A DNA stretch of 40,740 nucleotides from a virus. The notes beneath the pieces are model-generated. The model was given only the letters and a program-made list of their open reading frames with translations, did not search any database and had not been told where the DNA came from. A program made the position numbers and the translations under genes. The DNA lies in IMG/VR virus record IMGVR_UViG_3300000234_000011, positions 1-40,740 of that record; one strand, written 5' to 3'. The stretch's first letter is position 1. Every line of letters starts with the position of its first letter. Below, in pieces: positions 1-40,740 of this stretch.

Positions 1-72
1 AATAGCAAATCATCTGCCTCATCTTCCATTGTTTTTGCTTTTTTACCTTTTGTTGTTTTTACTGGTTCTTCT
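1..72. repeat. Terminal direct repeat, left copy (circular contig overlap)
   Basis: These 72 bases are identical to the last 72 bases of the window. The gene crossing the edge continues seamlessly across the junction and reaches a TAA stop just beyond it. The simplest reading is an assembly overlap of a circular or circularly permuted genome; a true short terminal repeat is less likely because the edge cuts a coding region. Confidence 0.9.
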
Positions 73-3262: not shown

Positions 3263-3640
3263 TTACGCTTCTACTTCTGTGCTGTTGATTTCTTCTGTCT
3301 GTGATTTTGCAAATACTGCAACCAATCTAAACCCTTTTACGATTTCTTCTTTTGTGTCTTTGTCTTTCTCTACTCTAGGCGTAAATATCCATTTTGCTTT
3401 TTCTCCTTTCTTTACTGCACGTCCAGCGTTCAACCATTGGTGGAATCCTCCGAAAACGTCAACGTCTGCCCCTTGTCTCATTAAAAAGATTGTATTCGTC
3501 AAAGAATAAAAACCCTTCTCGCTGATTGTTGGCATACCTGCACAAACTTCAAGTTCTTCTTGTGTAGCTGGTGCTTTGTACATTGCTGTCAATTGTTCTT
3601 TAGTCAAAGTCTTTGTAGTTGCTTGTGTTGTGTTTTCCAT
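3263..3640 (-). CDS. ArdC-like ssDNA-binding (antirestriction N-terminal domain) protein
   Basis: ATG 3640 to TAA 3263-3265; 125 residues, no TGA. Residues about 60-118 (FHQWLNAGRAVKKGEKAKWIF...KGFRLVAVFAKSQTEE) match the core of the ArdC N-terminal family, whose hallmark is a KKGEK-I/W segment followed by F-x-VxVFxxSQT. Full-length ArdC proteins carry a metallopeptidase domain after this; here it is absent, so this is a stand-alone binding domain. The family binds single-stranded DNA and can protect incoming DNA from restriction, which suits its place directly after promoter 3696-3723. Confidence 0.7.
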   Translation of the reverse strand: MENTTQATTKTLTKEQLTAMYKAPATQEELEVCAGMPTISEKGFYSLTNTIFLMRQGADVDVFGGFHQWLNAGRAVKKGEKAKWIFTPRVEKDKDTKEEIVKGFRLVAVFAKSQTEEINSTEVEA

Positions 3641-4849: not shown

Positions 4850-4856
4850 AATTCTC

Positions 4857-4884
4857 TTGATTTTAGAGTATTTTTGTATATACT
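4857..4884 (+). promoter_or_regulatory. Rightward promoter of the structured RNA and replication genes
   Basis: TTGATT (4857-4862), 16-base spacer, TATACT (4879-4884). A start near 4891 would produce the folded RNA at 4891-5044 and, on read-through, the replisome organizer message. Confidence 0.75.
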
Positions 4885-4890
4885 AGTGTC

Positions 4891-5044
4891 AATCAAAAGG
4901 ACGTACCAAATCCTTGCGTGTACTAGTTGAAAGCCGTTGTGCAGGTGCAAAACCTCTCGGACACCTAGATATGAAACCTTCCATTGAAGGAGTACACACA
5001 AGATATGAAACCCTCGGGCTTGGTACGTCTACGAGGGTTTTTTT
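4891..5044 (+). ncRNA. Structured RNA or leader with its own promoter and terminator
   Basis: About 154 nt lie between a strong promoter and an intrinsic terminator. Pairings visible are: closing stem GACGTACCAA (4900-4909) with TTGGTACGTC (5020-5029), 10 perfect bp; GTGTACT (4918-4924) with AGTACAC (4991-4997); AGGTG with CACCT (4943-4947/4962-4966); CCTTC-CATT-GAAGG (4977-4990). AGATATGAAACC occurs twice (4967-4978, 5001-5012). The terminator AACCCTCG / CGAGGGTT plus T-run (5009-5044) carries the 3' strand of the closing stem in its loop, so the two can only coexist as a pseudoknot. It may be an attenuator for the organizer gene starting at 5065 or a stable sRNA. No known riboswitch class was recognised. 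Confidence 0.65.
5009..5044 (+). terminator. Intrinsic terminator of the structured RNA
   Basis: Stem AACCCTCG (5009-5016) / CGAGGGTT (5032-5039) and a run of T to 5044. The T-run overlaps the TTTTATA element 17 bases before the organizer start codon. Confidence 0.75.
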
Positions 5045-5064
5045 ATATGTTCCTCTGTACTAGT

Positions 5065-6144
5065 ATGTGGAAAGTACCAATTCCAACCGACCTTGATTCT
5101 ATCTTTTGAAACAATTATCTTGCCAAACATTGCTATATTGTTTTGTTACTTCGTGCAAGATACCTAGATTCTCCAGCAGAAGCTGAAAGCTGATGACGTT
5201 TGTTTCTTGTCGAAAGATGACAATGGGTGTTCGGTTATATCAAACTTTGCGAGGAGTTGCGTTGTTCCCGTCAACAATTACGTCTGACTATGGACAAACT
5301 TAAAAATGTATATAAACTAATTGATTTTTTCGGTACTCCCAAAGGGTCCGTTTATACAATTTTATGATATGATAGTATTGTAAATATGTCCCCAAATGGT
5401 ATGAAATCGGAACTTGACACGTTGCAAAAACAGAGGTTGGAACTCATTGACAATACTCCAGAAGTACACAGCACCTCGAAAAAACAACCAACAAACGTAC
5501 AAAAAACAACCAACAGTCGTATAGAAAACAACCAACAGTCGGACAAAAAACAACCAACAGAAATGGGTAGTTTAGAAGAAGGGCAAGCCAAAGTTGAAAA
5601 GGCAACAACCAACAGTCAACCAACAGACGTACAAAAAACAACCGACAGTCGTACAAAAGAAAACTTCAAAAAAACCACTACTATAGATATAAAGAATATA
5701 GATATAGAGAATAATAATATTGTCGATTGATTTTTTTCTTCCCCGCAGTGAACTAGTCCAGATGAAAAAAATCAACCCGTTCCGCTATTTGACATTTTCT
5801 ACAATAGTTATGGAAAGAAAATAAACCCCTCAATGGCTAGAGCAAGTTTTGCGAAGGCTTTGAAAGTTGCAAGTTTTGATACGATAATGGCTTGATTAGA
5901 ACGTTGGCAACGTTATTGGAGAAAGAACAAAACAAACTTTACGTTTCTTCCTCACCCGTCGACGTGGCTTAACAAGCGTAGTCGAGAGACTACTTTCGAG
6001 GAGGAGACCAAAACGCAACAGCAACGGATTGATGAATTGGATAGTTATTACGCAAAGGAGAACCAGAAGGGATTTATTGAATTGTACTGAAAAGAAAAAT
6101 ATCTTGAAGTTAAGAAGCGAAGGCTTAAACAAGCATTAGCATAG
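5065..6144 (+). CDS. Replisome organizer / replication initiation protein
   Basis: ATG 5065 to TAG 6142-6144; 359 residues. The N-terminal 105 residues (MWKVPIPTDLDSIF-G-NNYLAK...ESGGRLFLVERGQWVFGYIKLCEELRCSRQQLRLTM... GSVYTILGYDS) form a winged-helix domain typical of phage replisome organizers; several glycines are TGA. A Gln/Thr/Asn-rich linker follows, whose DNA carries 22-bp iterons. The C-terminal domain has FDIFYNSYGKKINPSMARASFAKALK... and PHPSTWLN, the signature of the helicase-loading half of such proteins. It would bind the origin in its own gene and recruit the primase-helicase encoded next. Start chosen from the TTTTATA element 17 bases upstream; in the standard code only fragments are visible. 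Confidence 0.85.
5484..5659 (+). repeat. 22-bp iterons, probable replication origin
   Basis: Units with consensus ACAACCAACAGTCGTACAAA plus two A start at 5484, 5506, 5528, 5550 (half unit), 5616 and 5638. All are in 22-bp phase, with 5550 to 5616 equal to exactly three units; a further out-of-phase copy starts at 5605. Because 22 is not a multiple of three, the repeats are read in different frames of the organizer gene, so the repetition is at DNA level. An A/T-rich stretch (about 5660-5740) follows, as in the lambda O-gene origin. Confidence 0.8.
5660..5740. other. A/T-rich stretch beside the iterons, candidate unwinding element
   Basis: This segment, still inside the organizer gene, is rich in ATATAGA and AATAATAT-type sequence and directly follows the last iteron. 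Origins of the lambda type have such an easily melted region on one side of the iterons. Role inferred from position and composition. Confidence 0.5.
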
Positions 6145-6168: not shown

Positions 6169-7908
6169 ATGTATGAAATGCACAAGCATTACCCAAATTT
6201 TGCCTCCTGTTCTTTGCAAACGTTCCCAGATAACAAGAACCAAAAGGAGGACAAAACCCTAAACAAAATCATGGATACAAGCGATTTATCGATTGACCGT
6301 TGCAAAACATTGAACAACAAAGGAGCAGGGATTTTCTTTTCTGTAAACTCTATGCAACGCTGAAAGCGTGACATTGCGAGTATTACAGGGATTAACGCAT
6401 GGATTTGTGAAATCGACTGACTAGAAAAGGAAGCACAACAGCGTTTGATAAAGATTTCGCCAATCAAGCCTTCGATGATTATCGAAAGCAAAGCGTCGTA
6501 CCACCTGTATTGGTTTGCGAGTGATTGAACAATCACGAATCGAAAGCGTATTTGTAATGGCTTGCGTAATTTCTTTGATGGCGACCCGCAGGTTGTCGAC
6601 GTTGCAAGAGTGTTGCGTTTACCTTGATACTACCACAAGAAAGACCCGAGCGACCCATTTATGATAAAAACGATTTACGTTTCTGACAAGAAACGCACGG
6701 AGAAGGAAATGCTCGAGGCGTTTCCAGATACGACTTCGTTTACAGAACTAAAGCAAAAGGCTCAAGAGAAACACAACGTGTTTCGCTCGCATTGCGGAAC
6801 TGATAACTTTCGGGAGAGAGTGAAGGCAATGGATTGCAAAGCAATGTTGCGTGAAATATCTTGAACAACGCTTGTTTGATGAGAGAGTTTCGATTTCAAG
6901 AGGAACTCGAGCGGTACGGAGCAGATACTTTGCAACGGCAAGTTGACGTGATGTTGGATTGACACAAGCTGAAAGATTGGGAGTAAGAATTGATGAGGAC
7001 CGAATCGAACCAATCGAGTATTTCGATACGGGCGTTGTGACTGAAAGGAACTGCACGAACGAATCAAACACAAACACCCAGAAATGCTAGAATCTAAACA
7101 CATTATAGTCCCCAGAGTAGAGACAAAGAGCGTAGCGTTGACGTTTTCCCGATGATTACAAAGCATTGACAAGGCATTGTGAATGCCTGCGACGTGAGAT
7201 TTTGTGTTATTGGCATGATTCCCAAGTGTTGGGAAGACTGAATTTATGTACTTTGTTGCAAGAGAGAACTCAAAGAAAACAAAGGCTTGCTACTTTGCCC
7301 TAGAGTTGCCATGAGAGACAATGAAGCGTAGATTAGCAAGGAGTTATGCTGGCATAACGAAGTATAATTTCCAGATTGGAAATTATACAGAGAGTCAAAA
7401 AATGCAGATGAACGATTATTACGACTTCTTGAACTCTTTCGATGATTTGGAATTTTTGTCGTACGAATCATCGCCAAAGATAGAGGACATTGTGAAAACT
7501 ATACAAGAGAAAGCCAAGCAATGATGTAATTTGTTCTTTGTCGATAACATCGGCAACATTGCTTGAACTAGTGACGAGATACAACGTTTGGCGGAAGTAT
7601 CGAAGGTACTACGTATGGTTGTAAACAATTTGCAAGTGTGTGTGTTTTGATTACACCACATGTCGAAGCCCAAAGGGCAAGAGGTTTACAAGCCATGAGG
7701 ATTGGGAAAGATACGTGGTACGCAAAAGCTGATAGACGACGCAACGATAGTTGCGGAGATTTACAGAGATTTAGACCCAGACAACGACGACCCGCAAAGC
7801 AGGGCGGAAGTTATTTTGAAACAGTACAAAGACACGACGGGAGGAGTGACAGGGACTGTTGATTTCTTTTTCCAAGAATGAAATTATGCCGAGGAGTACA
7901 AGAAGTAA
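6169..7908 (+). CDS. Primase-helicase: AEP-type primase fused to DnaB-like helicase
   Basis: ATG 6169 to TAA 7906-7908; 579 residues with many TGA glycines. The N-terminal part has primase-polymerase features: AWICEID (about 77-83), YHLYW (about 111-115) and RVLRLPG (about 147-153), as in RepB/AEP primases. A Cys- and Gly-rich segment (about 235-295) resembles the small domain that follows such primases. The C-terminal half is a RecA-fold helicase: Walker A GFPSVGKT at 350-357, whose first Gly is TGA (7216-7218), Walker B FFVDN around 459, then VFGLHHMSKP and a KYPDTTGG-like loop (KQYKDTTGG). It would prime and unwind at the fork, loaded by the protein encoded just upstream. Confidence 0.85.
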
Positions 7909-40668: not shown

Positions 40669-40740
40669 AATAGCAAATCATCTGCCTCATCTTCCATTGT
40701 TTTTGCTTTTTTACCTTTTGTTGTTTTTACTGGTTCTTCT
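40669..40740. repeat. Terminal direct repeat, right copy
   Basis: Exact copy of positions 1-72. It repeats the 3' end of the SSB-like gene, including its acidic C-terminal coding part. It should be counted once when the genome is closed. Confidence 0.9.

What the first reader, a model, noticed from the sequence alone, without database searches (positions are those of the whole stretch)
4891..5044. Promoter-to-terminator structured RNA upstream of the replication operon
A 10-bp perfect closing stem shares its 3' strand with the loop of the intrinsic terminator, so the RNA must choose between, or knot, two structures. Internal stems and a duplicated AGATATGAAACC add order. This is what an attenuator or riboswitch, or a compact regulatory sRNA, would look like. 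It matches no class I recognise.
Basis: partly seen in the sequence, partly recalled or inferred. Interest (0 to 1): 0.7.

Follow-up and report, generated by a model that had tools for sequence, protein, structure and literature searches.

The report
Switch RNA before phage replication genes
In a virus of tiny bacteria that read a stop codon as glycine, the RNA just before the replication genes can fold so as to block its own transcription stop signal; two related viruses carry the same design in different letters, which suggests a previously undescribed on/off switch for viral DNA replication.

Summary
In detail: promoter-like site, perfect 10-bp stem P1 (4900-4909/5020-5029), intrinsic terminator (5009-5016/5032-5039 + U7) whose loop contains P1's 3' strand, and AGATATGAAACC twice. 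The context was misread. The record uses code 25 (TGA=Gly), so the replication gene starts at 5065 (or 5047), not 5386. The element is therefore the 5' leader of the replication operon, its terminator ending about 20 nt before the start codon. Searches found the same topology (P1a-Ta-P1b-Tb-U-tract-ATG), in unrelated letters, before the replication operons of two other TGA-recoded phages (L154, L300). In P1, 7 of 8 pairs differ on both sides. A strict descriptor found 5 sites in 2.76 Mb of both strands, three of them these leaders; shuffles gave 0, 0, 1, 0. Window and L154 also share a three-way-junction core (AGUU[U]GAAA / AUGAAA). While polymerase stands on the U-tract, only P1 can fold. Best reading: a transcription attenuator in which P1 pre-empts the terminator by occupying its loop, working like guanidine-IV riboswitches or pT181-type rep attenuators. 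No Rfam match. The effector (ligand, protein, antisense RNA or none) is unknown; nothing was tested experimentally.

The parts
4857..4884 (+). promoter-like site TTGATT-16-TATACT
   Evidence: 9/12 consensus match; L154 has TTGCAA-16-TATAAT (10/12) at the equivalent place
4891..5044 (+). leader RNA of the replication operon (start estimated from the promoter, end of the U-tract)
4900..4909 (+). P1a, 5' strand of the long-range helix (4899 if the G.U pair is counted)
   Evidence: perfect inverted repeat I14
4918..4924 (+). P2a, pairs with 4991-4997 (outer extension 4914-4917 with 4998-5002 across one mismatch)
   Evidence: folds; core descriptor
4925..4932 (+). joiner motif AGUUGAAA, shared with L154 (AGUUUGAAA) at the same place
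4943..4966 (+). P3 region (AGGUG 4943-4947 / CACCU 4962-4966), tentative
   Evidence: by analogy with the P3 hairpin of L154; not the minimum-energy fold
4967..4978 (+). first copy of AGATATGAAACC; its AUGAAA joins P3 to P4
4977..4990 (+). P4 hairpin (4977-4981 / 4986-4990)
4991..4997 (+). P2b
5001..5012 (+). second copy of AGATATGAAACC; its 3' end is the start of the terminator stem; not conserved in L154
5009..5016 (+). Ta, 5' arm of the intrinsic terminator
5020..5029 (+). P1b, 3' strand of P1, inside the terminator loop (linkers of 3 and 2 nt)
5032..5044 (+). Tb, 3' arm of the terminator (5032-5039), and U-tract (5038-5044)
5041..5046 (+). TTTTAT element at -24 of ATG 5065, this phage's usual pre-start motif, overlapping the U-tract
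5065..6144 (+). replication initiation protein gene under code 25 (alternative start 5047)
   Evidence: phrog_270, phrog_9474
6169..7908 (+). primase-helicase gene (RepB-type primase fused to DnaB-type helicase), second gene of the operon
5096..5126 (-). candidate antisense promoter TTGGCA-19-TAGAAT facing the leader; not above chance
4971..5063 (+). possible 30-codon leader frame starting at the first AUGAAA; unproven

Best explanation
It is a cis-acting transcription attenuator in the 5' leader of the replication operon of a TGA=Gly phage of the Absconditabacteria/Gracilibacteria group. Transcription starts at about 4891 and meets an intrinsic terminator that ends about 20 nt before the replication gene. 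The RNA's 5' end (P1a) can pair with the terminator's loop (P1b) across a three-way-junction core. P1b leaves the polymerase before the terminator's 3' arm, so P1 gets the first chance; a formed P1 occupies the loop, delays or distorts the hairpin, and transcription runs on into rep (ON). When P1 fails to form, because the core, an antisense RNA or a protein holds P1a or P1b, the hairpin forms and the replication genes stay off. Shown by sequence and computation: the anatomy, the position, the recurrence in two more phages, the compensatory turnover, the predicted competition and the order of folding. Inferred: termination itself, the direction of the switch, and the existence and identity of an effector.
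For: Code 25 puts rep directly behind the terminator. The same topology stands before the replication operons of recoded phages L154 and L300, with linkers of 1-5 and 0-2 nt and unrelated letters. Window, L154 and L300 each gave 0 of 2000 shuffles. Strict descriptor: 5 distinct sites in 2.76 Mb x 2 strands, three of them these leaders, against 0, 0, 1, 0 in shuffles. 7 of 8 P1 pairs and 9 of 10 terminator pairs changed on both sides in at least one relative, all still pairing. P1 and terminator folds nearly isoenergetic in window and L154. With a 14-nt polymerase footprint only P1 can be present on the U-tract in all three. Shared core in window and L154. Precedent for antitermination through a terminator loop.
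Against: Only three instances; the window is the seed. Three other phages with the same helicase family (L155, L239, L240) lack the tight form, and L300 lacks the core shared by window and L154. The promoter match is weak. In L300 the terminator is 10 kcal/mol more stable than P1. P1 and the terminator share no bases, so mutual exclusion is assumed on steric or kinetic grounds; a knot with both is not excluded. No transcript or termination data.
Confidence: 0.6

Rival explanations
1. Counter-transcript attenuator of the pT181/pIP501 kind: an antisense RNA made from a promoter near the rep start binds the nascent leader, prevents P1 and so lets the terminator form, setting replication by copy number. 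This differs from the main explanation only in naming the effector.
For: Location is the same as in pT181 and pIP501, terminator just before the rep start. Antisense promoter-like sites lie just behind the terminator in window (5126-5096) and L154 (4300-4273). The antisense strand of L154 folds into two hairpins, the second followed by UUUCAUU (z -3.0).
Against: One site per leader is near what shuffles give (0.28 and 0.47 expected) and L300 has none. The antisense U-tracts are weak. It does not explain the AGUU(U)GAAA motif.
Confidence: 0.17
2. Ribosome-mediated attenuation: the conserved AUGAAA is the start codon of a leader peptide whose translation decides between P1, P2 and the terminator.
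For: A 30-codon frame runs from ATG 4971 to a stop at 5061-5063, next to ATG 5065; in L154 the frame from ATG 4193 runs 30 codons into the rep start.
Against: With only two stop codons such frames are common by chance. Neither AUGAAA is preceded by the TTTTAT element found at many gene starts of this phage. No run of one regulatory codon.
Confidence: 0.1
3. A free-standing small RNA that ends at 5044 and acts in trans, with rep expressed from another promoter.
For: Promoter-like site, compact fold closed by P1, terminator.
Against: Only 20 nt separate the U-tract from ATG 5065 under code 25, so no room for a separate rep promoter between them; the same position before rep in L154 and close before the operon in L300.
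Confidence: 0.08
4. A DNA element of the replication origin: the repeats and inverted arms are initiator binding sites and the RNA structure is incidental.
For: Next to the initiator gene; the cumulative GC skew has its minimum at 4-6 kb; two direct repeats 34 bp apart.
Against: The skew turn coincides with the divergence of gene orientation. The repeat is not duplicated in L154 or L300. It does not predict a P1 strand inside a terminator loop with short linkers in three phages.
Confidence: 0.05

Closest known systems
Guanidine-IV (GGAM-1/mepA) riboswitch (PMC7736828, PMC11611296)
   Same: Leader of a coding gene; the loop of the terminator hairpin pairs with an upstream segment and this pairing is proposed to hinder completion of the terminator and give read-through; start codon close behind the U-tract.
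   Different: There the pairing is a kissing loop within a highly conserved aptamer before transporter genes such as sugE; here P1 is a 8-11-bp helix made by the RNA's 5' end (an open strand in window and L154), the letters are not conserved, and the gene is a replication initiator. No Rfam match.
pT181 and pIP501 rep leader attenuators (reviewed in PMC5703833)
   Same: Terminator-like stem just before the rep start codon, and an upstream pre-emptor that prevents it.
   Different: The pre-emptor there pairs with the terminator's 5' arm and is controlled by an antisense RNA; here P1a pairs with the loop, and no antisense RNA is established.
Type III toxin-antitoxin RNA (ToxI-like), from memory
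   Same: Direct repeats spaced about 34 nt, structured RNA and terminator before a gene.
   Different: Downstream gene is a replication initiator, not a ToxN-type toxin; the repeat is a 12-mer found twice and is not conserved as a pair.

Membership tests
Any Rfam 15 family | match at the family's gathering score | tested here: not met
   No match in the window; nothing relevant at E up to 10 (the best over the leader is His_leader at 16.8 bits against 49 required); L154, L155, L239, L240, L300 give only tRNAs.
Guanidine-IV riboswitch | conserved aptamer sequence and structure | tested here: inconclusive
   No Rfam match, but whether a guanidine-IV model is among the 4227 was not checked separately.
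Guanidine-IV riboswitch | pairing of an upstream segment with the terminator loop | tested here: met
   P1b fills the loop; this is likeness of mechanism, not of family.
Guanidine-IV riboswitch | guanidine exporter or related gene downstream | tested here: not met
   Replication initiator and primase-helicase.
Guanidine-IV riboswitch | binding of guanidine | not testable with these tools
   Needs in-line probing or a termination assay.
pT181/pIP501-type rep attenuator | terminator immediately before the rep start | tested here: met
   U-tract 5038-5044, ATG 5065.
pT181/pIP501-type rep attenuator | pre-emptor pairing with the 5' arm of the terminator | tested here: not met
   P1 pairs with the loop, not with 5009-5016; only L154 has a short P2b-Ta pairing.
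pT181/pIP501-type rep attenuator | antisense RNA from a promoter within or just behind the leader | tested here: inconclusive
   Promoter-like sites in window and L154 at chance level, none in L300.
Riboswitch (any) | conserved aptamer core in homologues | tested here: inconclusive
   Shared core in window and L154 only; descriptor drawn from them.
Riboswitch (any) | direct ligand binding | not testable with these tools
   Experiment needed.
Type III toxin-antitoxin (ToxIN) | ToxN-like gene directly downstream | tested here: not met
   P0001 matches replication initiation families.

The most novel reading that the evidence does not exclude
A new aptamer-bearing RNA class (three-way junction with AGUU[U]GAAA and AUGAAA joiners) in phages of glycine-recoded patescibacteria that senses a host or infection signal and licenses phage replication by closing P1 through the terminator's loop, so that exclusion is by topology and timing rather than by shared bases.
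Probability: 0.25. Interest if true: 0.85.

Novelty: new variant of a known kind. Interest (0 to 1): 0.6.

Why it matters
It would be an RNA switch on phage replication in a bacterial group that can hardly be cultured, and a case in which a terminator is pre-empted through its loop instead of its arms, a mechanism proposed so far for guanidine-IV riboswitches. Because the terminator and its competitor share no bases, the design can keep its logic while all its letters change, which may explain why sequence-based RNA searches miss it. It can be tested directly in vitro with a standard polymerase. It also shows that the genetic code must be settled before an intergenic RNA is interpreted.

Tried and rejected
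Pattern search with the duplicated 12-mer in IMG/VR gave only coding repeats. Close-relative searches with the helicase and the capsid protein found none. Capsid alignment A1 gave 80 loci at about 30% identity, none clearly recoded. blastn against phages and plasmids: no match for the window leader, only short chance matches for the L154 leader. Terminase relatives L244-L262 gave no tight instance. Pattern TAGTT(N)GAAA..WATGAAAC in 353 genomes of the host class was at the level of its reversed control and the loci fetched had no clear instance. MAFFT could not align the two leaders structurally, so no covariance model was built; descriptors were used instead. A core match in L140 (2255-2310) was set aside as probably chance: 26% GC, no P1, no terminator. 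L155, L239 and L240 have structured or pseudoknot-like leaders but not the tight form (7/2000, 2/2000 and 26/500 shuffles as good). Type III toxin-antitoxin and replication-origin readings were considered and rejected or kept low.

Full report
What was claimed and whether it is there. All of it is in the sequence. The ordinary fold is only modestly better than shuffles (z -2.2). The unusual arrangement stands out more: the best P1a-Ta-P1b-Tb-U-tract score in 4850-5064 was 39.2, and none of 2000 dinucleotide shuffles reached it.

The genetic code changes the picture. Under the standard code the longest frames are short. With TGA as sense the frames are long, and TGA (2.6%) plus GGN (4.2%) together make a normal glycine share while TGG is 0.66%. 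This is code 25, known for Absconditabacteria, Gracilibacteria and most predicted Absconditabacteria phages (PMC10746230). Capsid relatives at about 44% identity lie in genomes of that bacterial class, against about 33% for the best outside it. The record has a 72-bp terminal repeat, so it is probably a complete genome. Under code 25 the replication initiation gene is open from ATG 5047 or 5065, not 5386. In this phage TTTTAT stands before 15 of 41 start codons, nearly always at -25 to -19, and in none of the control stretches; Shine-Dalgarno motifs are rarer than in the control. TTTTAT at 5041-5046 favours the start at 5065. The RNA is therefore the leader of the replication operon, and its U-tract ends about 20 nt before the start codon.

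Relatives. Close relatives of the operon are absent from the collections. An alignment of primase domains led to L154, a recoded phage whose primase-helicase is 45% identical. Upstream of its first replication gene lies CAATCGCGAGA ... ACCCACTCTAT-TTTGA-TCTCGCGATTG-G-ATAGGGTGGGT-TTTCTTTT, then ATG. The topology is the same in wholly different letters, although the first gene (P0006) belongs to another family than the window's P0001. A degenerate pattern for the primase gave further recoded phages. One of them (L237; its upstream region is L300) has GACGCTCA ... GGGAGTAAAC-A-TGAGCGTC-GTTTACTCCC-TTTTTATT before the same operon.

Is that chance? A strict descriptor (terminator stem of 8 or more pairs, P1 of 8 or more pairs filling the loop with linkers of at most 5 and 2 nt) found five distinct sites in 2.76 Mb of both strands: these three leaders, one in L118 and one in L155. 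Four shuffles of the same sequences gave 0, 0, 1 and 0. The window was the seed; L154 and L300 are the independent hits, and both lie at the homologous place. Each gave 0 of 2000 shuffles on its own. Registered from the loop side, 7 of 8 P1 pairs and 9 of 10 terminator pairs differ on both sides in at least one relative while staying paired. With three very diverged sequences this shows conservation of an architecture, not column-by-column covariation in a true alignment.

The core. Window and L154 also share what P1 encloses: a helix P2, then AGUU(U)GAAA flush against it, a hairpin P3, a short joiner ending in AUGAAA flush against hairpin P4, and P4 flush against the other strand of P2. A descriptor for this (P3 not required) found window, L154 and one doubtful site in AT-rich L140 in 2.79 Mb; 12 shuffles gave one hit in all. 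The descriptor was drawn from the two sequences, so its significance is inflated. L300 does not have this core. It could be an aptamer; that is inference.

How it probably works. Forced nested folds with P1 or with the terminator are close in energy in the window (-42.9 and -41.1 kcal/mol) and in L154 (-36.5 and -38.4); in L300 the terminator is much the stronger. P1's 3' strand precedes the terminator's 3' arm by 0 to 2 nt, so it leaves the polymerase first. With a 14-nt footprint, P1 is the only one of the two that can be present while the polymerase is on the U-tract, in all three. A formed P1 would hold the loop of the nascent hairpin rigid and so favour read-through. The two helices share no bases, so exclusion would be steric or kinetic; with linkers of 0 to 5 nt a knotted co-existence cannot be excluded by simple geometry. 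Guanidine-IV riboswitches give a published precedent for antitermination by pairing with a terminator loop, and pT181/pIP501 for a terminator with a pre-emptor before a replication gene. The most likely outcome is read-through when P1 forms and shut-off when something captures P1a or P1b. What that is cannot be said: candidate antisense promoters are at chance level, and the 30-codon leader frame is unproven.

Limits. The effector and the sign of the switch are inference.

Noticed in passing
window, before many rightward genes (for example 28759, 29332, 30469); also L140: TTTTAT stands at -25 to -19 before the start codon in 15 of 41 genes (0 of 41 control stretches) and in 10 of 13 genes of the related phage L140, while Shine-Dalgarno motifs are missing: a position-specific start signal of unknown nature.
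   Followed up: partly
L154:7420-7512: A second attenuator-like leader in the same phage (P1 TTGCACCC/GGGTGCAG, terminator CCTTAGA/TCTAAGG-TTTTTT), directly before a gene that looks like a GIY-YIG-type protein; here the terminator's 5' arm can also pair in a competing hairpin GCCTTA/TAAGGC.
   Followed up: partly
L155:3975-4080: A very stable, different leader before rep (z -5.4 against shuffles), with a long stem that runs into a U-tract; L239 has a similar region.
   Followed up: partly
L155:3771-3843; L300:1-125; L239:350-420: A tRNA gene (L155) or tRNA-like 3' end lies just upstream of the rep leader, with an integrase gene next to it in L155: some of these recoded phages are probably temperate, with replication genes beside the attachment site.
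   Followed up: no
window 1461, 3723, 4157 (- strand): Three near-identical promoters TTGCAATTAGA..ATATACT/ATATAGT on the minus strand before leftward genes: probably this phage's early promoter.
   Followed up: no
window 1-72 and 40669-40740: 72-bp direct terminal repeat: probably a complete circular or terminally redundant genome.
   Followed up: no
window 3263-3640 (-): Protein matching the N-terminal domain of the ArdC anti-restriction factor.
   Followed up: no
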